A stretch of 64,000 nt of DNA, from positions 6,738,694 to 6,802,693 of the forward strand of contig NC_049988.1 in NCBI RefSeq assembly GCF_000003815.2, in the 5' to 3' direction. Within the stretch, counting starts at the first letter, position 1; each line of letters begins with the position of its first letter. This DNA comes from Branchiostoma floridae. Its lineage: Eukaryota > Chordata > Leptocardii > Amphioxiformes > Branchiostomatidae. The notes beneath the pieces are model-generated. The model was given only the letters and a program-made list of their open reading frames with translations, did not search any database and had not been told where the DNA came from. Below, piece by piece: positions 12,869 through 63,040 of the stretch. The translations under genes were made by a program, and so were the position numbers.

Positions 12869-14215
12869 GATTGAAAATCAATCTAATGCCCCCCTCCCCC
12901 TCCACCTAACCCCCTTAAGTACGACGGTATAGTCCATGTATTTATTGTACTGTCAAGATGAACGGTCTAACAACATCCGATGCTTAAATCCTTTAAAGGC
13001 AACTTGGAATAGCAACGATAATTTATATCAGCACTTCCCGGCAATATGTCAATATATTCCCGACTTAAGCATAAGAAGTAAACGTTATAGGGCCTTCACA
13101 CGGAAATCGAATTAGCAGGAATCTAGCCGAACCAGCCGGAATGAAGTATTTGCAAACTTCGTGTCACATTCGGGGCCATTCGGGCGGGAATTCCAAATAG
13201 GCCTTAAATCCCCTTCACACGAGAAGGAATGAGCCGGAATGCCGTCAGAATGAAAATTCTTGTCTATTCCTGTGAATTCGTAGTGCATTGTAGACATTCT
13301 TACGGCATTCGAAATATTCTTTCGGCCACATACGGGCAGGATTCGAAGTGGCTTGCCGTTTCTGTTCTCCATCGAATGAGATAAGAATGTTTCGAATAAT
13401 GTGAGAATGCCGTAGAATGCGGTCAAGACTGCAGTCAGAATAGTTAGAATACACTAAGAATACACTACGAATGCCATTCGATATTTCTCCACTTCGAATG
13501 CACCTCGACAGTTTTTAACAATATCAAAAACATTCGAGCCAGCCAAATGAACGGGGACGAATATCTCGAATGCAGTAAAAATGTTTAGAATACAGTACGA
13601 ATTGCGAGGAATTGCCACGAATAGAAAAAAAAATTCATTCGGACGGCATTCCGGCTCATTCGTGCTCTCGTGTGAAGGGAGCTTTATGGACGACGTACTC
13701 TGCAGATATGAATCTAATGTACATATAAATATTTATCATATTGAGGGCAACTTTTTTCATCAAACCTTATTTTAATGACACGCTCGCAGACGATGTCATC
13801 CATGTAATCAAAGCAACATGGCCTTTCGTATGTGAGGTAAATTGCTTATTGATCACCTTAACTCGTTAACCGCATTGACACGTATCCGTACTTGTAATAA
13901 ACAAGGCCAACTTTTCATCCTAATTGTTATCAATTGCACACTGTCAGTGACCATATGTCGTTTGATAAAGTTATCTAGATCATTGAGGGCTCAACATCTT
14001 CGATTTTACAAAACAATTGCCCCCTTGAGGCCTGACATACGATCATATTCAATGAAGACAAATGTGATATCAGACTTCTGTCATGAAATCATCAGTTTGG
14101 CAGCGATTTGACAGGGTCATGATGTTGTAGATTTGTCGTTTAAAGGGATTGGGTTTGAAGCACTTGTCAAATCACCACCTCCCTCTATGACCATAACACA
14201 TTTTTTTTAATAACC
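12869..14215. repeat. Direct repeat unit B, interrupted by a transposon
   Basis: This is the partner of unit A, in the same order and orientation, split by the element at 13089-13683. The counterpart segments at 14015-14215 match 12670-12865 (GCCTGACATACGATCATA, TCAATGAAGACAAAT, TGTTGTAGATTTGTCGTTT, CATAACACATTT). Confidence 0.75.
13089..13683. mobile_element. GAATGC-rich foldback-type element, copy 2, probable TTAT duplication
   Basis: The ends AGGGCCTTCACACGG and CTCGTGTGAAGGGAGCT are inverted repeats. TTAT flanks both sides (13085-13088 and 13684-13687). The interior is densely packed with GAATGC/GCATTC in both orientations. The homologous position in unit A (TTTTATGGATAACATCC) reads as the empty site, which supports insertion after the duplication. 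No transposase is encoded. The superfamily is not settled. Confidence 0.8.
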
Positions 14216-15537: not shown

Positions 15538-15540
15538 TTA

Positions 15541-16393
15541 GGCCATGTTGATTTGATTATATGGATGACATCCGCGCTCGCACCAATTTTCGGCCATTTC
15601 CAACAAAAAAAAGTTTTCGACCCTACAATAAATTGTGCAAAGCAGCTGTAAAATGAGCATAAATATTCCGTAGATTGAAAAAAAAGTATCAGAAAACAGA
15701 TAACTAATGCCATAGAATGCCCAAATGAATCTAAAGTCAAAGAATAAGATGTGAAAGGACAGAAAGAAAAAAAAAATCTATTGTTGGTTGGGGAGGTACC
15801 AGTACAGAAAATTCAGGTCCAGAGGATCATTTCCAGGTCCGGACATGAACCTGGACCTGATTGTCTGTGGAAACTTGAGAACTGGCAATACTCAAAACAA
15901 TGGTAATTGGTCAATTTTGCTACAAAGGAATCTGTTTGGTGGATTATTGGACTCCCACTGCATTTTAAAATCCCATCTCCATGTAATAAAGGCTAACTGT
16001 CTCTGTACCTTTGACTGTAATTGACTATAAACTCTACTTGACTTCGCTCTTGTTGTCTTCTTGGCCCCCCGGTTAGACCCCAAATGGCTGCCGACATAGT
16101 GTGTCCATTTTGTAATTGGCAAAACCTGTTCCTCTGTTGTTTTTTTTAGGTCTGTTTTTTTCCGATTGGTCCAAGAAGAAAAAAATGTTTTGCACCCATA
16201 TGATGTACTGGTCCCTACACATAACTGTTGATATACCATACTATGTGTGTTTAGTCCTATGTTCAACCTTCCTGGCCACTTTGATTTCATACTGAAGGCA
16301 ACTTTTTTTTTGGCCAAACTTTTTTTTTCGCTCGCTCGCATCAGTTTTGGCGTTCCCAGAGGATGTCATCCATATAATCAAATCAACATGGCC
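15541..16393. mobile_element. Harbinger/Tourist-like MITE, 853 bp, TTA target duplication
   Basis: The ends are a perfect ~33-bp inverted repeat beginning GGCCATGTTGATTTGATT and ending AATCAAATCAACATGGCC, reaching into GGATGACATCC. TTA flanks at 15538-15540 and 16394-16396. Inside, 15795-15910 matches the GGTCCAGGTCC-type repeat at 19522-19655, so a second element is nested or captured. The 149-codon minus frame at 15892-16341 has no transposase motif. Confidence 0.9.
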
Positions 16394-16396
16394 TTA

Positions 16397-21890: not shown

Positions 21891-22892
21891 GTTAATTACA
21901 CAACGGATAATTGCACACTTCTGTCAATTACATGAATCCCCAAAATCACGTGGTGGTGCGGTCCAGCTTGATAATTTCGCTTTGATGCACCAATCGGATA
22001 TTTGCACGAAATGCACTGGCAAATGGGGTGTGCAATTTACCGGCTTCTACTGTACAGAAGAAGCCAGTTAATTGCACAACGGATAATCGCACACTTCTGT
22101 TTAAATTGCATGAAACCAACAATCCGGTAGTGATGCGGTCCAGCTTATTGATTTCGCTTTGTTGCACCAATCGGATAATTGCACGAAATGCACTGGCAAA
22201 TGGGGTGTGCAATTTACCGGCTTCTACTGTACAGAAGAGGCCAGTTAATTGCACAACGGATAATCGCACACTTCTGTTTAGATTGCATGAAACCCAAAAT
22301 CCGGTAGTGGTGCGGTCCAGCTTATTGATTTCGCTTTGTTGCACCAATCGGATAATTGCACGAAATGCACTGGCAAATGGGGTGTGCAATTTACCGGCTT
22401 CTACTGTAAATTGCACAACGGATAATCGCACACGTCTGTTTAAATTGCATGAAACCCAAAATCCCGTAGTGGTGCGGCCCAGCTTATTGATTTCGCTTTG
22501 TTGCACCAATCGGATAATTGCACGAAATGCACTGGCAAATGGGGTGTGCAATTTACCGGCTTCTACTGTAAATTGCACAACGGATAATCGCACACGTCTG
22601 TTTAAATTGCATGAAACCCAAAATCCCGTAGTGGTGCGGCCCAGCTTATTGATTTCGCTTTGTTGCACCAATCGGATATTTGCACGAAATGCACTGGCAA
22701 ATGGGGTGTGCAATTTACCGGCTTCTACTGTAAATTGCACAACGGATAATCGCACACGTCTGTTTAAATTGCATGAAACCCAAAATTCCGTAGTGGTGCG
22801 GCCCAGCTTATTGATTTCGCTTTGTTGCACCAATCGGATATATGCACGAAATGCACTGGCAAATGGTGTGTGCAATTAAACGGCTTCTACTG
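21891..22892. repeat. Head-to-tail array of a Tigger/pogo-like MITE, open on both strands
   Basis: The unit has ends of the type CAGTAGAAGCC...GGCTTCTACTG and inner motifs TTAATTGCACAACGGATAAT and GCACTGGCAAATGGGGTGTG. The marker TGGGGTG (last copy TGGTGTG) starts at 22024, 22201, 22378, 22540, 22702 and 22864, so the spacing is 177, 177, 162, 162 and 162 bp. Both lengths are multiples of three and neither contains a stop in one frame per strand. This yields a 309-codon frame on minus (21946-22875) and a 283-codon frame on plus (22028-22879). I interpret both as by-products of the repeat, not genes. A solitary copy is at 25181-25354. Confidence 0.92.
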
Positions 22893-31910: not shown

Positions 31911-31916
31911 ACCGGT

Positions 31917-32980
31917 GTGACAGCGATCTCGCCCCCCCGTGATCTCGCCCTCCCCGGCTAGTGATCTCGCCCCCCTACCTCGCCCCCCTTTAGCGATTTC
32001 GCCCCCCCCCCCCCCAAAAAAAAACCGGGTTAACATGACATTTTAGAAGTTGATTGGTATAAATCACAAAATGCAGTTTCAGAATGATATAAGTACACGA
32101 GTTTGATACATAACTCCATTCATAGTATCAATAGTAACGTAATTACATGGTAATAAGATAGTTGAACTTGTTTCAGACAAGGAGGGTTGGGTCCCTTGTA
32201 TTCCCATTATTGCATATACCTGAGTCTTGACATAAGATGTATTTCATTGTATTCACCTGTCCTCAAGCAACCTATATATCTCAAATATGAAGTCTCTACC
32301 ATGAAGTGACCACAAAAGAACTATGTAATGTCTTTATTAATTATGCAAATATTAGGTATTAATTAGAATAACGCACATTTTGGTATATGCACCTGGCCAA
32401 GGGATATCTTCACCTCCAACATGACTGTTTTTTTCTAGTATTTAGGAACTGATGCATTTACCCGTGTTTCTGAAGACTGGTACTTTACCAGTGTTTGTGT
32501 AGCATTTAGCAACAGCTATATCAACTTGCGCGTAGATAGTGTTTATAATGAGAAACTATTATTCACGTGTGTTTTTGTTAGTGCTTTGGAAATGTTTCCA
32601 GCACAAGAAAGACAACACTGTGACAAATTGAAAACATATAGCTGACGTATTCCGTACCATAGACGGTGTTGATTTATACGTTCGCAGTAGCACTGTTTTT
32701 ATGCCACCTCAGCTGCAAAAATTGTCTCTTTCATTTCAATGTCATGTTTGCACCGAACAATATAGTATCGACTTTCGAGGTATGACAGGCATCTTACGGT
32801 ACGGTAATAAGGTGCCATATAGGTACCAGGTAACACACCATACACGTTACTCCCCAGGTGCAGTATAGTACCAGGTAGCGCACCTGTAATATGTAGTAAC
32901 CAGCTGCTCTTGGGGGGGGGGGGGGGGGCAAAAACCCTAAAGGGGGGCGAAAACCCTAGGGATCTCCCCCCCCGGGGGGG
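31917..32980. mobile_element. 1.1-kb element with G-tract termini, copy 1 (right end truncated)
   Basis: The left terminus GTGACAGCGATCTCGCCCCC opens a ~100-bp block of GATCTCGCCC-type repeats with long C runs. A ~900-bp AT-rich interior follows, then a G-rich right block (32909-32980). Compared with copy 2 at 60516-61621 the interior is about 97% identical where I aligned it by eye (8 differences in about 250 bp). The final inverted terminus GCGAGATCGCTGTCAC is missing here; the sequence passes directly into a pogo-like fragment. A 108-codon minus frame at 32699-33025 spans G-runs and is not a gene. Confidence 0.88.
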
Positions 32981-33081
32981 TAACTTGTAGATAAAATACC
33001 CAAGGGACCGACAAAAAGTGGCCACTATGGACAGGTGGCCCCTCTGTAGAGGTGGCCCCTAATACAGGTTTGACTGTACTG
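32981..33081 (-). mobile_element. Tigger/pogo-like terminal fragment
   Basis: On the minus strand it begins CAGTACAGTCAAACCTGTAT and continues through GGGGCCACCTCTACAGAGGG. This matches the general style of Tc1/mariner-pogo (Tigger) ends as known from animals. It abuts the broken end of the 1.1-kb element. Confidence 0.65.
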
Positions 33082-34129: not shown

Positions 34130-34345
34130 CACACCTAACTCTTGCACATCTATCAGCAAGTGTTCTTTAAAACTATCCAGAGAAGATGCCCCTGTTGTGC
34201 TTGGTCATAACAAATTCCACTATACAACAGTTCTGGGAAAGTATGAATCATAGGTTGTTAACTTTGGTATTTGAAGGCATGATTCTTTCTTTTTTGTGTG
34301 TGTTTTTTTTTTGTAGCTGGTATTAGATACTTATCAGTTGGTACG
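34130..34345 (+). repeat. Dispersed repeat shared with 59440-59655
   Basis: TTCTTTAAAACTATCCAGAG, AACAAATTCCACTATACAAC, AGTTCTGGGAAAGTATGAA and GGTACGTCCACCAGTT recur at 59460-59655 in the same order. A short frame is shared, but most codon differences are amino-acid changing and this copy has a stop, so I treat it as non-coding. Confidence 0.75.
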
Positions 34346-34469
34346 TCCACCAGTTCATTGGTCATTTTGTACATCATGGAAAGTCTGGACATTTCCTACT
34401 GTCTTCAGGTGATGTCCGCTGCAATTTTGTTTTCGTTTTGCTGTATCTGTATCTATATAACTGGTATAA

Positions 34470-40949: not shown

Positions 40950-41184
40950 CACAAGGAATCTCACTGCATTTGGGACACAGGTGCGGCACTGCCGGGTTCG
41001 TTCTTTGCGGCACTGTTGTGTTATTTTTGCCATTATTTCGTAATTTAGATGTTGCGTAATACGTAAAAATAAAACAAAAAGTACACAAAGCGAAAGAAAA
41101 TTTGTTCTTTATCTGTGGAATTCTTTAAGTGCCTTTCGAACCCGCAGTGCCGCACCGGTGCCCCAAGTACAGTGAGATACCACC
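40950..41184. mobile_element. GGTGGTATCTC MITE, copy 1 (left end degraded)
   Basis: The left end GAATCTCACTGCATTTGGG with GGTGCGGCACTGCCGGG and the right end CAGTGCCGCACCGGTGCCCC then AGTGAGATACCACC. Same family as 49012-49269 and 54892-55098. Confidence 0.8.
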
Positions 41185-41399
41185 TTTCGCTGACCTATGT
41201 GCCACTAGCCAGCGGCTACAAGGTTAACAACAATTTATTACAGCTTATATAAGGGGATCTCTCCATATGAAGTTAGTCGTTTTTCAAACGGAGTTAAGCT
41301 CCTCGTCCCAGATGTTACGACATTCCTTTAGTTGGGTGGACTTGAGCCAGTAGCGCCTCTGGTAAGCCTCTAAATTGTTTTCATCTCACTTAAGAAAGA

Positions 41400-48689: not shown

Positions 48690-49011
48690 TCAAGGATACT
48701 GCTTTTTATAAGACACCGGAAACTTCAAAGAGAATAGAGATAGATTCGTGCTTGGGAATAGATAAGTCTCTAATGGAAAAGACTTAAACTGAATTTAGTT
48801 GCTCACATCGTGAGTCGGCTACAAAGAGAAACTTCCGTGCTAATTTTACTGAAAGTCTACGAAATCAAATCAAAGTGATATCCTTTTATCTATTATTATC
48901 ACTAAGTCCGCATCTGATTGTTTGAATCATACACAGCTAAATTTAGACATCGTTCGAAGGCCCCCATTTCCGCTTGACGGCGATCTCGCTGTGTGCTCGC
49001 TGAAACAAAAA
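48690..49011. other. Non-coding; possible repeat end near 48958
   Basis: GGCCCCCATTTCCGCTTGACG at 48958 resembles 28693. Nothing else recognised. Confidence 0.4.
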
Positions 49012-49269
49012 GGTGGTATCTCGCTGCACTTGGGGCACAGGTGTGGAACTTCGGGGCTCGAAAGAATACTCAACGAATTTCAGAAATAGAGAACGAATTT
49101 TCTTTGTGTATTTTGTTGCATTGTAAGATTTTTGTTGTGTTGTAAGCCGCACTTTTACGTATTACACAATATCTAAATTATAATACATCGGCGAAAATAA
49201 CACAACAGTGCCGCAGTGAACGAACCCCGCAGTGCCGCACCGGTGACCCAAGTGCAGTGAGATACCACC
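49012..49269. mobile_element. GGTGGTATCTC MITE, copy 2, complete
   Basis: Starts GGTGGTATCTCGCTGCACTT and ends AAGTGCAGTGAGATACCACC. The arms extend about 50 bp (GGGGCACAGGTGTGGAAC / GTGCCGCACCGGTGACCC). AAA lies on both flanks, but a target duplication is not certain. Confidence 0.88.
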
Positions 49270-49418
49270 TTAAATTGGAAAACTTAGATTTGGGTTATCC
49301 TTGACTTCATAATTGAAATATCATGCAAAATGTAAATGTATGACCGAAAAGACGTCAAAGCACACAAATCGTAGAAAATGATTCGTGTCTAGTTTCATGA
49401 AATTCTAGATCTAAAATA

Positions 49419-53484: not shown

Positions 53485-54700
53485 GTTTAAATTACTTCCG
53501 TACTGACACCCTAAGTTCGTAATGTGACAGAGAGTATAGGTTGTAGGTTCACACCATATGTCTAATGTATAAGCGTGGTTAGGCCATGTTGATTTGATTA
53601 TATGGATGGCATCTTCTGGGAACCACAAAACTGATGCGAGATGAAAATTTTAGAAAGTTGTCATCATTCTAAGATACACGTGGTCTGGAAGGCTGAACAA
53701 CTGTCCAACCACACACAGAGTATGGTATACCGAACAATTGATTTTTATATTTCAGCCACACCATAGGTATGGTGAATTATATTGCATTCGTAATGTTTTT
53801 TCTCCTGTCAAATCTTCAAATTGATTCATCTCTGTCGTTACTGGACCTAATGATCTGAAATTTGGCACAAGGGTAGAGTGGGCCAATTACCTCAGGCGTG
53901 TTTTTTTCTTCATTTTTTTTTTCATACCTGCCATTAAAATGATTTTATTGAGATTTTTGGCACTTTTTATGTATATTTTGGACCCCTGTACCCTGGTATT
54001 ACAGCCGAATGACCTGAAATTTGGTACAGAGGTTCCTTGATCACATGCCTATATAAAACCAATAGCAGGTTTGGCATACAGCACAACAAAATGCTTAATT
54101 TTGCCATTGTTTGCCATTTTTCGACAAAAAATCAACTGACCTGAAATTTGGCATAAGACACAATGTTGTTGAAACGACCGAAAATTGATGCACGCGGATG
54201 TCATCCATATAATCAAATCAACATGGCCTTAGAGCTGGAGCTCGAGAGAGCTGGGCCTATAGTTTCTTCATCCACTTTCAAGTGTTAAACTGCTGAATTC
54301 TGTGCCCTGGGTACAGCTATTACAGAAAATTACTTCCGTACTGACACCCTCAGTTTGTAATGGGATAGATAGTATAGTTTGTGAGGTCACACCATCTGTC
54401 TAATCTATTACATTGCTTATCATACCGAGCTTGTACTATAGTTCTGCATTCAATTGCAAATCATTGTTAAATTGAGGAATTCTGTGCCCTAGGTACAGCA
54501 ATAATAAAAGCTACTTCCGTACAGGCGCCCTTAGTTCATAATGTGATATATTGTCTAAGTTGTTGGGGTCACATTGTCTGTCTAATGCACGGTGCCTTGG
54601 TTATTATACTATGCTGGTCCTAGTTTTTTTCATCCATTTGCAATTCACTGTTTAACTGAGGAATTCTGTACCCTGGCTCCGGCAATAACAATATGAAAGA
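53485..54700 (+). repeat. ~185-bp tandem array split by a Harbinger-like MITE
   Basis: ACTTCCGTACTGACACCCT and related starts lie at about 53500, 54330 and 54515. GAATTCTGTGCCCT-type segments lie at about 54295, 54477 and 54660. Once the element at 53582-54228 is removed, the copies are contiguous. Confidence 0.85.
53582..54228. mobile_element. Harbinger/Tourist-like MITE, 647 bp, TTA target duplication
   Basis: Ends GGCCATGTTGATTTGATT and AATCAAATCAACATGGCC; TTA at 53579-53581 and 54229-54231. The interior has three copies of a GACCTGAAATTTGGCACA-like phrase (about 53853, 54011, 54140). No transposase. Another satellite unit (GCCTTGGTTATTATACT) gives an approximate empty site. Confidence 0.92.
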
Positions 54701-54891
54701 CTTCATGCTGTTTTGTGCTCAGACTTTAAAAGCTCATTAAACCTCATTGACCACATAAAGAGAGTGATAAGCCATGGGGAATCGACAATCCGACTGCTGC
54801 TAGAAACAAAGGCATATTATATGGCAAAAGGTAGAAGGTTTTCCAATAGTTTTCAACTAAATGTTGAATATCACAGCTTATGGTGGTATCT

Positions 54892-55098
54892 CACTGCACT
54901 TGGGGCACCAGTGTGGTACTGTGGGATTCGTTCACTGCGGTACTGTTTTGTTATTTTAATAATACGTATAAGTATGACTTAAAAGACAACAAAATACACA
55001 AAACGTAAGAAAATTCCTTATCTTTCTTTTGAAAACTTTGAGTCGTCAACGAAGACCGCAGTGCCGCACCGGTGCCCCAAGTACAGTGAGATACCACC
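54892..55098. mobile_element. GGTGGTATCTC MITE, copy 3, complete
   Basis: GGTGGTATCTCACTGCACTT to AAGTACAGTGAGATACCACC, 207 bp. The arms include GGTACTGTGGGATTCG / CCGCAGTGCCGCACCGG. It is directly followed by a SINE body. Confidence 0.88.
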
Positions 55099-55104
55099 TT
55101 AAGT

Positions 55105-56369: not shown

Positions 56370-56850
56370 GGAATGTCTTCTTGTCTGAGTATTAAAAGCT
56401 TGGAGGTCACTTTTAGAGATGTCTCCGACCACACTGTCCCATAGGAATTTACAGATAGTAACTGTTGCGTGTATGAATGTCCTTCCTGTTGAGGAATGTG
56501 TTATTGTCCAAGTATTAATATCTTGGAGGTCACTTTAAGGGATGTCTCCGACCACGCTGTGCGGTAACATGAATGTCCTACCTGTTGAGGAATGTGTTCT
56601 TGCCTGAGTATTAAAAGCTTGGAGGTCATTTCTAGGGATGTCTCCGACCACACTCTCCGGTGGGAAGTTGCAGGTAGTAATTGTTGCATGTATGAATGCC
56701 CTACTTGTTTAGGAATGTGTTCTTGTCTGACTATTAATGACTTGGAGGTCACTTTTAGGGATGTCTCCGACCACAGTGTCCGGTAAGAAGTTACAGGTAG
56801 TAACTGTTGCATGTATGAATGTCCTGCCTGTTTAGGAATGTGTTATTGAG
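56370..56850 (+). repeat. ~123-bp tandem array, about four copies
   Basis: GGAGGTC starts at 56402, 56525, 56621 and 56744. The 96-bp interval is a unit with a 27-bp deletion. Shared parts: GGGATGTCTCCGACCACA, GTAACTGTTGCATGTATGAA, GAGGAATGTGTTCTTG. All lengths are multiples of three, so open frames persist on both strands. Confidence 0.92.
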
Positions 56851-57475
56851 ACAGTTATATAGTGAGGTTATGTCTATGCATAGCTTGTTTGGTGTGTGTT
56901 GTTGTTTGTCTTCATGTAAACTGGTGTGAACTTCTGCACACGGTCTTAAAAGGTCCTTATCCTTACAGCGAGACATAAAGTGGTTTTCAAGGACGGCTAT
57001 TTCACTTACGAAGTGGGCATGGGTGAAATATAGACTTTGATAGTGTTTGCTTGTGTATTGAGTATGGGAAAGTTTATTCAAGTTATGGACTTTACCCAGT
57101 CTTTGCTGTGACGGTAGGAACACGGAAACATATTGTATATTTTACGAAACAGTAACACAATGCGTTGGACAAATATCTACAGTGAGTGCAGCATGAATAA
57201 TACTTTGATTATTTCGCAAAGGTAGTAGCTATTGTCTGAATAGTTTCTGATGGTACACTGGTTCAACATTTTGAATAGTCCATGCATTGTATTCCGGTTA
57301 TTTGTTTGTGGATTATTTGTACACTTCAAAGTCGTCCGAGGACAAGAAGCAAAGGATGTTGTTTGTTTAGGGTACAGAAATGCAAGAATGACGTATGAGA
57401 CAAGACTGCAGTAAGGATGTGGTGTTCAACATTCTGTGCATTCTAGTGGTTAACTTAACTAGCTGTCTGCCGTTT
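56851..57475. other. Non-coding stretch, nothing recognised
   Basis: A 110-codon frame on minus at 56791-57123 begins in the array and has no domain. Confidence 0.45.
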
Positions 57476-57868: not shown

Positions 57869-58181
57869 ATAAGTAACACTTTTAATACGGACTCCATATC
57901 AATCAGTGTATCCCTGAACAAAATTTTTGTATCGTTGGGGAGGAGATAAATGAAAGGTAATGCATCTTACAAGTGCTTCATTTCGATTGGCAAATACAAA
58001 TACAAATCCTACGGATTAAAGGATTTGTGTAATGGCCACCGTCTGCTAATGCATCAAAAATCATGTGACGTTCATTACTGAACTGACCTAGTTAAGAGGA
58101 GGAATACACTCAGTCACTCACTGAAGATGAACAACGTGGCAATGACTGAGGCGTAAGAAAAATATGTTGTGTTTTCTGTTA

Positions 58182-58257
58182 GGCCATGTTGATTTGATAA
58201 TATGGATGGCATCCTCTATAGGAACTCCAAAGGTGATGCGATCAAATCAACATTGCC
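58182..58257. mobile_element. Minimal Harbinger-like MITE, 76 bp, TTA flanks
   Basis: GGCCATGTTGATTTGATAAT at the left and GATCAAATCAACATTGCC at the right, TTA at 58179-58181 and 58258-58260. It consists of little more than the two termini and is the shortest member in the window. Confidence 0.85.
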
Positions 58258-59439: not shown

Positions 59440-59655
59440 TTGCATATCTATAGGCAAGCATTCTTTAAAACTATCCAGAAAAAACGTCCCTACTGTGCTT
59501 AGTGATACCAAATTCCACTCTACGATAGTTCTGGGAAAATACGAATTTTTAAACACATCAATCCTAGGTTGATAACTCTGGTACTTGAAGGCATAACTGT
59601 TTCTTGTTCTTTTGGGGCTAGCATTAGATACTTAGGTACGTCCACCAGTTTCTGT
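59440..59655 (+). repeat. Dispersed repeat shared with 34130-34345
   Basis: TTCTTTAAAACTATCCAGAA, ACCAAATTCCACTCTACGAT, AGTTCTGGGAAAATACGAA and GGTACGTCCACCAGTTTC match in order. Class unknown. Confidence 0.75.
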
Positions 59656-60240: not shown

Positions 60241-60515
60241 TGTTATAGTTTTCTTTAATAAGATAATTATGTTATTCCTCTACACAGCATGACTTCTAAA
60301 TGGTATTTCATATTTGTTTGCAGTATTTTTAATTACCTTTGCCAAGAAGGTTATATTTTGGGTAGCGTTTGTGTGTGTGTGTTTATTTATTTGTGTGTAG
60401 AAGACCAGCATATCTCTAGAACGCCTGGACAGATTGTATTGATATTCAATATGTGGGTATGTGATGAGACCTGAAACGCAATTAGATTTTGCACCCCCTA
60501 GCAGCTTGTTACGTT
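60241..60515. other. Non-coding spacer
   Basis: Short (GT)n at 60368; nothing else recognised. Confidence 0.4.
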
Positions 60516-61621
60516 GTGACAGCGATCTCGCCCCCCCCCCGGGGGGGAAATCACTAGCGATCTCGCCCTCCCCGGCTAGTGATCTCGCCCCCCTACCTCG
60601 CCCCCCTTTAGCGATTTCGCCCCCCCCCCAAAAAAAAAAACAGGTTTACATGACATTTTAGAAGTTGATTGTTATAAATCACAAAATGTAGTTTCAGAAT
60701 GATATAAGTACACGAGTTTGATACATAACTCCATTCATAGTATCAATATTAACGTAATTACACGGTAATAAGATAGTTGAACTTGTTTCAGACAAGGAGG
60801 GTTTGGTCCCTTGTATTCCAATTATTGCATGTACCTGAGTCTTGACATAAGATGTATTTCATTGTATTCACCTGTCCTCAAGCAACCTATATATCTCCAA
60901 TATGAAGTCTCTACCATGAAGTGACCACAAAAGAACTATGTAATGTCTTTATTAATTATGCAAATATTAGGTATTAATTAGAATAACGCACATTTTGGTA
61001 TATGTACCTGGCCAAGGGATATCTTCACCTCCAACATGACTGTTTTTTCTAGTATTTAGGAACTGATGCATTTACCCGTGTTTCTTAAGACAGGTACTTT
61101 ACCAGTGTTTGTGTAGCATTTAGCAACAGTTATATCAACTTGCGCGTAGATAGTGTTTATAATGAGAAACTATTATTCACGTGTGTTTTTGTTAGTGCTT
61201 TGGAAATGTTTCCAGCACAAGAAAGAATACACTGTGACAAATTGAAAACATATAGCTGACGTATTCCGTACCATAGACGGTGTTGATTTATACGTTCGCA
61301 GTAGCACTGTTTTTATGCCACCTCAGCTGCAAAAATTGTCTTTTTCATTTTAATGTCATGTTTGCACCGAACAATATAGTATCGACTTTCGAGGTATGAC
61401 ATCTTACGGTACGGTAATAAGGTGCCATATAGGTACCAGGTAACACACCATATACGTTACTCCACAGGTGCAGTACAGTACCAGGTAGCGCACCTGTAAT
61501 ATGTAGTAACCAGCTGCTCTTGGGGGGGGGGGGCGAAAACGCTAAAGGGGGGCGAAAACGCTAGTGATCTCACCCCCCGGGGGGGGGCGAGATCGCCGGG
61601 GGGGGGCGAGATCGCTGTCAC
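60516..61621. mobile_element. 1.1-kb element with G-tract termini, copy 2, complete
   Basis: Starts GTGACAGCGATCTCGCCCCC and ends GGGGCGAGATCGCTGTCAC, a clean terminal inverted repeat. Subterminal blocks consist of reiterated GCGATCTCGCCCCC-like units with runs of 6-10 C on the left and the G equivalent on the right. The ~900-bp interior is AT-rich and near-identical to 31917-32980. There is no long reading frame, so it is non-autonomous. I cannot fix the target duplication: flanks are GTTACGTT and ACCGGTAC. Confidence 0.92.
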
Positions 61622-61768
61622 ACCGGTACTGCAGCGGAACTTTCGGGATTGATATCTCGAGTTCTGTACATGCTGTGGTCATGATGTTTGAGTGGTAGAT
61701 AGCTCTTGGGGTAGAGAGTAAGTGGTGTAGGTCCGGGCCCTCTAGTGGCTTGTTTTGAAACTGCAGGG
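61622..61768. other. Spacer
   Basis: Nothing recognised. Confidence 0.4.
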
Positions 61769-61860
61769 GCTGGTTTAGTGTCAGACTTTTTTCCTATTTG
61801 TTCTCTACTAAAAGTACATCAATTTACAGCGATACATAAATCTGATTGTGCACACGCGTG
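61769..61860 (+). repeat. 92-bp direct repeat (target duplication), left copy
   Basis: GCTGGTTTAGTGTCAGACTT to TGTGCACACGCGTG, identical by eye to 62641-62732, flanking the LINE insertion. Confidence 0.95.
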
Positions 61861-62640
61861 TTTTTTTTTTTTTTTTTTTTTAATTTTTTCCACATTTTAT
61901 TCTTCATTCACAATGTTACAATCAATGATACAATGAAGTGTGTAAGTAACCATGGTAACAAACAATAACAAAATAGATTACGTCAAATATACACATATAT
62001 ATAACGAGCTATTATATTTTACAACATGTCCCCTGACTTCAGTACTACACTAGTACTGTCTGAAAAAAGTATGAACGTTGGAACTAAAGAACTTAGCTCC
62101 TCTCCCTTTATAAAATGCAACAAGTAAGTGCTCACGAAGGGAGAACAAAATTATTAAATGGCAAGCATCGAAATACAAATAAAAAGCGGATACATCTGCA
62201 TCTCAACAGTACCAGTCATATTGCCAGCTTGTGGGCAAGACAGCAATTACTCAAGACTTTGTTCTTCTTATTTCATACTATATATGTTCAGAAACATGGA
62301 TATTTCAATTTATGTACGACATTAACTTTAGGTCTGTCAAAAATGTTTCAAATATGTTGCTGTATAACTCTGTATTAGTATCTATATGTCTCAACCACTG
62401 TTAAAAATAGAGAACTTTGCAATCGAGATTATCCTGTAACAGACCATATATTACTGATTCCAAGAAATATAAGTGGTTTTGATATTGAGACATGTAATCC
62501 TCTTCGATACAACACATCTCCAACATCCTTCCAAAACAACCCCAGCTTTCTACAGTTATAGAACATATGGACATAGGTGTCTTTTTCATTGCATAGTGTG
62601 CATACAGGGCTGTATATTTCACCCAGTGTGTTTTTAATTT
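61861..62640 (-). mobile_element. 5'-truncated L1-type LINE insertion
   Basis: The 780-bp insert begins on the plus strand with 21 T (a poly(A) tail on the minus strand). At its other end it has an open fragment that encodes the cysteine-rich C-terminus of an L1-type ORF2 protein. It is bounded by identical 92-bp direct repeats. This is the known product of target-primed reverse transcription with 5' truncation, although such duplications are usually under 20 bp. Identity of the flanks implies a recent event. Confidence 0.88.
62429..62638 (-). pseudogene. L1-type LINE ORF2 protein, C-terminal fragment
   Basis: About 69 codons are open on the minus strand from the insertion edge (62638) to a TAA stop at 62431-62429. 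Residues 13-29 read CTLCNEKDTYVHMFYNC, a C-x2-C-x7-H-x4-C motif. This is followed by a LFW segment, as in the C-terminal cysteine-rich region of L1-clade ORF2 proteins. That region lies downstream of the endonuclease and reverse-transcriptase domains, which are absent here because the copy is truncated. After the stop come about 550 bp of presumed 3' UTR and then poly(A). The fragment has no start codon of its own and is not functional. A different frame with an ATG (62401-62622) overlaps it and is a shadow. Confidence 0.82.
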
Positions 62641-62732
62641 GCTGGTTTAGTGTCAGACTTTTTTCCTATTTGTTCTCTACTAAAAGTACATCAATTTACA
62701 GCGATACATAAATCTGATTGTGCACACGCGTG
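62641..62732 (+). repeat. 92-bp direct repeat (target duplication), right copy
   Basis: Identical by eye to 61769-61860. Confidence 0.95.
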
Positions 62733-63040
62733 TTGCTTCTCACATCTCGCACGTCAAACTATGAAGAGAAAAATATTTAAGCTTTTCTAGCGACAGAGAT
62801 ACATGTAAAAACATGCCATGCATATTGCCAAAAACCCACGTGCGCCCACCCATAAAAAAAACAACGATGTTACCCAAGCCGTATGCTCATAATTTAATTT
62901 GTTATTCATTAATAAACGCAGCCCTGTTTTTGGACACACATTTTAGATTAGTCTGGCGCAAGACATGCCGGTTGTATGTTGTATTTTTTATTCTAAAATT
63001 AATATGAGTGATGCCACGTCGACGTCAAGCACACCGTATT
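62733..63040. other. Non-coding spacer
   Basis: Nothing recognised. Confidence 0.4.

What the first reader, a model, noticed from the sequence alone, without database searches (positions are those of the whole stretch)
60516..61621. 1.1-kb transposon with G-quadruplex-prone termini, two near-identical copies
The element ends in GTGACAGCGATCTCGCC inverted repeats and carries subterminal arrays of GATCTCGCCCCCC-like units with C/G runs of 6-10. Copies at 31917-32980 and 60516-61621 are about 97% identical in the portion I compared by eye, so the family moved recently. The interior encodes nothing. Reiterated subterminal motifs could be transposase-binding sites. The G-tracts could form quadruplexes in single-stranded intermediates. 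I do not recognise the family.
Basis: partly seen in the sequence, partly recalled or inferred. Interest (0 to 1): 0.72.

Follow-up and report, generated by a model that had tools for sequence, protein, structure and literature searches.

The report
Non-autonomous transposon with repetitive inverted ends
This is a 1.1-kb jumping DNA element that makes no protein of its own, seen in two copies, whose ends and insertion sites look like those of the known Ginger1 transposons, so it is probably a parasite of a known kind with unusually repetitive C/G-rich ends.

Summary
A non-coding element lies at 60515-61622 (1108 bp), with a second, right-truncated copy at 31916-32980. The copies match at 999 of 1040 aligned columns; the interior differs at 21 of 879 sites (K2P 0.024). 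Flanks on matching sides are unrelated, so this is a mobile element, not a segmental duplication. Both ends carry imperfect ~100-115-bp inverted repeats built from a 16-nt C-rich unit (11 units in copy 2, 8 in copy 1, 2 elsewhere; 20 controls gave 0-4). TGTNR tips, a CCGG target and 40-270-bp TIRs are the published signature of Ginger1 transposons, which use a Gypsy-integrase-like transposase (PMC2836005). I call it a probable non-autonomous Ginger1-type element (0.6). Against this, no copy shows an intact duplication (copy 2: ACGT left, CCGG right) and no transposase was seen. The whole-genome search did not complete (12 calls), so copy number, partner and host stay open. The quadruplex idea is weak: copy 2 has no canonical motif and hairpins compete.

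The parts
60515..61622 (+). Copy 2, complete element, 1108 bp, TGTGACAG...CTGTCACA
60515..60629 (+). Left terminal inverted repeat of copy 2, with 16-nt units in both orientations
61524..61622 (-). Right terminal inverted repeat of copy 2
61623..61626 (.). CCGG beside the right tip of copy 2, probable half of a target-site duplication
60511..60514 (.). ACGT beside the left tip of copy 2; should be CCGG if the duplication were intact
31916..32980 (+). Copy 1, same orientation, lacks about 19 bp of the left array and the last 37 bp of the right end relative to copy 2
31912..31915 (.). CCGG beside the left tip of copy 1
60641..61519 (+). Non-coding interior, K2P 0.024 from copy 1

Best explanation
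A non-autonomous cut-and-paste DNA transposon of the Ginger1 type. It encodes nothing and is mobilised in trans by a Gypsy-integrase-like transposase made by an autonomous relative elsewhere in the genome. The transposase binds the tip and the reiterated AGCGATCTCGCCCCCC units, pairs the two ends, cuts at TGT/ACA and joins the element to staggered cuts across CCGG, leaving a 4-bp duplication. Shown: the element, its inverted repetitive ends, two copies at unrelated sites, CCGG at two tips. Inferred: the transposase, its binding to the units, and the duplication.
For: Two copies 96% alike with unrelated matching flanks. Tip TGTGA fits TGTNR; CCGG abuts copy 1's left and copy 2's right tip. CCGG occurs at 90 positions of the 64,000-base window, so two or more hits among three flanks has a chance of about 6e-6 by my arithmetic, before allowing that I looked after the fact. 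TIR arms of 115 and 99 bp lie in the published 40-270-bp range. PMC2836005 (passages) reports for Ginger1 TGTNR tips, 4-bp duplications CCGG (75%) or CCGT/ACGG (24%), and a few non-autonomous copies in lancelet.
Against: No intact duplication in either copy: copy 2 reads ACGT left and CCGG right, two mismatches of four; copy 1 has no right tip. The shared stretch is ACCGG, so it could be part of the inverted repeat instead of a target site. No transposase and no third copy was seen. In the paper's passages that I read, repetitive C-rich terminal arrays are not described for Ginger1 (the word subterminal occurs 0 times in its main text).
Confidence: 0.6

Rival explanations
1. A non-autonomous element of another TIR superfamily with long, internally repetitive ends (Foldback/Galileo in the P superfamily, or a MULE), in which CCGG is part of the inverted repeat or coincidence.
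For: Long internally repetitive TIRs are what the abstract start in the search listing names as Galileo's most characteristic feature (PMC3573991, listing only); ACCGG is shared outside TGT by two tips.
Against: The boundary scan of copy 2 shows no direct repeat of 7-12 bp with at most one mismatch except the tip against its own inverse (TGTGACA/TGTCACA); the longest exact outside match is GCAGC, 5 bp, 9 bp outside the left and 8 bp outside the right tip. But copy 2 lacks an intact 4-bp Ginger1 duplication too, so this weighs against both readings.
Confidence: 0.28
2. Solo LTRs of a Gypsy-like retrotransposon, which also begin TGTNR and end in CA.
For: TGT...ACA tips; two copies in the same orientation.
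Against: Imperfect inverted arms of about 100 bp are not a feature of LTRs (established knowledge); the copies are 27.5 kb apart, and no reverse transcriptase or integrase hit was found in the 20 of 31 ORFs tested.
Confidence: 0.05
3. Segmental duplication or satellite-like array rather than a transposon.
For: Only two copies known; both in one 64-kb window.
Against: Homology ends at the element; 2-kb flanks on matching sides show no alignment better than E 0.11.
Confidence: 0.03

Closest known systems
Ginger1 DNA transposons (Bao, Kapitonov and Jurka 2010, PMC2836005)
   Same: TGTNR tips, CCGG at insertion boundary (two of three flanks), TIR length in the 40-270-bp range; the paper reports non-autonomous copies too (lancelet)
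   Different: No transposase seen here; no intact duplication; ends are arrays of C-rich units, which the passages read do not describe for Ginger1
Ginger2/TDD transposons
   Same: TGTNR tips, long TIRs
   Different: Published preferred target is AT-rich RTATAY; here the flanks are CCGG or ACGT
Galileo / Foldback (P superfamily)
   Same: Long TIRs with internal repeats (search listing only)
   Different: No 7-8-bp duplication found at the one complete copy (the length expected for P elements is recalled)

Membership tests
Ginger1 | 5' tip TGTNR, 3' tip its inverse | tested here: met
   TGTGA at 60515 and 31916, TCACA ending at 61622; copy 1 has no right tip
Ginger1 | 4-bp TSD CCGG or CCGT/ACGG on both sides | tested here: inconclusive
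   CCGG at two of three available flanks, ACGT at the third; no copy has it on both sides
Ginger1 | TIRs of about 40-270 bp | tested here: met
   imperfect arms of 115 and 99 bp, 72% identical over 115 columns (also 57)
Ginger1 | Gypsy-integrase-like transposase with YPYY, H2C2, DDE, GPY/F in the element or in an autonomous partner with the same ends | tested here: inconclusive
   none in this element; 20 of 31 ORFs of at least 110 aa in the window had no integrase hit; the genome could not be searched
Ginger2/TDD | AT-rich RTATAY target | tested here: not met
   the three available flanks are CCGG, CCGG and ACGT
P / Galileo / MULE | target-site duplication of 7-8 bp (P, recalled) or 4-10 bp (MuDR, PMC10045372 passage) | tested here: inconclusive
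   no such direct repeat at the tips of copy 2, but that is the only complete copy and it lacks the Ginger1 duplication as well

The most novel reading that the evidence does not exclude
A Ginger1-type element whose inverted repeats have become arrays of about ten C-rich transposase sites, most with a small dyad core (GCGA..TCGC), so that an integrase-like transposase acts through clustered sites, and whose C/G runs fold into hairpins or long-loop quadruplexes that drive the array's gains and losses.
Probability: 0.2. Interest if true: 0.45.

Novelty: new member of a known kind. Interest (0 to 1): 0.3.

Why it matters
Ginger1 links cut-and-paste transposons to the integrases of Gypsy elements and endogenous retroviruses, and PMC2836005 states that the mechanism of its excision is unknown (Discussion). 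A small non-coding member with clearly defined ends would be a convenient substrate for testing which end sequences the transposase needs. Otherwise it is one more small family in a repeat-rich genome.

Tried and rejected
Whole-genome copy search: the genome search 'own' with the element was sent 12 times and never answered. Copies in other collections: the 22-mer tip has 0 exact matches in viral contigs and genome contigs, a 32-mer of the interior has 0 in viral contigs, and blastn of the element found no phage record. These collections are viral or prokaryotic, so this says little.

Papers: four tip or unit strings occur in 0 papers of the held library, and five strings from two dispersed repeats of the window likewise, so the library did not identify the host. 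Of five recalled or guessed family names, only Ginger1-1_BF was found, in PMC2836005 alone. Two searches for quadruplexes in transposon ends were seen as listings only and I opened one paper from them, PMC2872659.

Rejected: coral MITEs of PMC2872659, which are TTAA-flanked, about 100 bp long and piggyBac-related (passages); IS481EU, described in PMC10045372 from parabasalids with TSDs of about 4, 15 or 25 bp (passages); a related element at 48974, whose tip-like match has 3 mismatches and no array unit around it. PMC12863088 held none of my six terms.

Full report
OBSERVATION. Two copies of a non-coding element lie in the same orientation. Copy 1 runs from 31916 to about 32980 and has lost its right tip. 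Blastn aligns them at 999 of 1040 columns with 13 gap columns; the interior has 10 transitions and 11 transversions in 879 sites plus 7 gap columns, K2P 0.024. Two-kilobase flanks compared left with left gave no hit, and right with right nothing better than E = 0.11. Of the crossed comparisons, left-of-copy-1 with right-of-copy-2 gave none; right-of-copy-1 with left-of-copy-2 gave an 82% match over 107 bp, an 85% match over 41 bp and weaker ones, which belong to a dispersed repeat more than 1 kb away from the element on both sides (the same pair is 34142-34355 and 59440-59650). So the homology ends at the element and the copies are best read as independent insertions.

ENDS. The tip TGTGACAGCGATCTCGCCCCCCCCC is shared by left and right of copy 2 without mismatch over 25 bp. 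Inside it both ends consist of a 16-nt unit, AGCGATCTCGCCCCCC, in direct and inverted orientation: 11 units in copy 2, 8 in copy 1, 2 in the remaining window, against 0-4 in 20 first-order Markov sequences of the same length. Read from the units listed, the core GCGA-TC-TCGC is a small dyad: of the 11 units of copy 2, 6 keep all four pairs (one of them as GTGA..TCAC, changed on both sides), 2 keep the outer three (GCG-TTTT-CGC) and 3 do not keep it. I made no chance test of this, and that it reflects a protein site is inference. Compared with copy 2, copy 1 lacks one inverted unit (about 19 columns) on the left and two units plus the tip on the right. Copy 1's right end also differs at several bases that lengthen C or G runs, so sequencing or assembly error in the runs cannot be excluded; run lengths should not be trusted.

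TARGET. Immediately outside TGTGACAG stand CCGG (copy 1 left, 31912-31915), CCGG (copy 2 right, 61623-61626) and ACGT (copy 2 left, 60511-60514). CCGG occurs at 90 positions in the window, 0.0014 per position, so two of three by chance is about 6e-6 by my arithmetic; the test was chosen after I recalled the Ginger1 target, which I then checked in print. ACGT against CCGG is two changes in four, which neither a target duplication nor an extended inverted repeat explains without mutation or recombination between copies. This is the main result against my reading. Nor does copy 2 have a longer duplication: the boundary scan's only 7-bp match with one mismatch is the tip against its own inverse, and its longest exact outside match is GCAGC, 9 bp outside the left and 8 bp outside the right tip.

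CODING AND SURROUNDINGS. The longest stop-free stretch in copy 2 is 71 codons. Of the 31 window ORFs of at least 110 aa I gave 20 to Pfam; none resembled a transposase or integrase. Eighteen had no hit. The two with hits were 56794-57141, with CEP104_ZnF below its cut-off, and 21949-22875, a translated tandem repeat with five weak families, one of them (DNA_repr_REX1B) just over its cut-off but with no stretch significant on its own. The other 11 ORFs, mostly simple or tandem repeats and two that run across a gap of N, were not scanned. The window has two tRNA matches and many dispersed and tandem repeats. Its look suggests an animal; lancelet is my recollection of similar sequence and comes from no call.

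QUADRUPLEX CLAIM. The canonical motif (four runs of three or more G, loops 1-7) occurs at 5 places in the window; one is in an element, the G17 run of copy 1 at 32912-32928, and none in copy 2. With loops up to 12 it also occurs at 61579-61606 in copy 2 and at 31932-31955 and 32942-32980 in copy 1. G4Hunter-type scores of 1.5 or more occur in 24 regions, 9 of them in the two copies and 15 elsewhere. Folded as single strands, three of the four end strands of copy 2 are more stable than all 200 shuffles (z -2.8, -3.8, -4.9); the fourth is not exceptional (z -1.5, 16 of 200 at least as stable). Facing C and G runs and the dyads pair, so hairpins are a competing structure. To my knowledge the fold as run here does not weigh quadruplexes.

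IDENTITY. Bao and colleagues (PMC2836005; abstract, 12 of 14 found passages and the Discussion read) characterise Ginger1 by TGTNR tips, TIRs of about 40-270 bp, 4-bp duplications CCGG (75%) or CCGT/ACGG (24%) and a Gypsy-integrase-like transposase, and report one autonomous lancelet copy with 77-bp TIRs plus a few non-autonomous copies. Here tips and TIR length are met, the duplication is seen at two of three flanks but in no copy on both sides, and the transposase remains unfound because the genome search did not complete (12 calls). I therefore say that it most likely works like a Ginger1 element, and that membership is probable but not shown. Whether the family is already in Repbase could not be checked.

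CHANGES AFTER RECHECK. The P/Galileo/MULE row was moved from not met to inconclusive, because copy 2 lacks the Ginger1 duplication just as it lacks a longer one; the dyad statement was recounted; distances and counts were mended.

Noticed in passing
13781-13825, 15538-15573, 16361-16396, 53579-53613, 54196-54231, 58179-58214: A motif of about 34-36 bp (GGCCATGTTGATTTGATTATATGGATGACATCC in its commonest form) recurs, 89-100% alike in the pairs found, at six places in both orientations; some of the surroundings are shared too. Family not identified (0 papers hold its strings).
   Followed up: partly
61769-61862 and 62641-62734: A 94-bp stretch repeated without a single difference 872 bp apart, just right of copy 2.
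   Followed up: no
40955-41187, 49009-49273, 54874-55103: A dispersed repeat family, about 70-75% alike over roughly 230-265 columns, each copy with inverted ends of about 46-59 bp: possibly another small DNA transposon.
   Followed up: no
32981-33080: Copy 1 ends abruptly in a G run and is followed within 40 bp by a GTGGCC-type 17-bp tandem repeat, perhaps another mobile element or an assembly junction.
   Followed up: no
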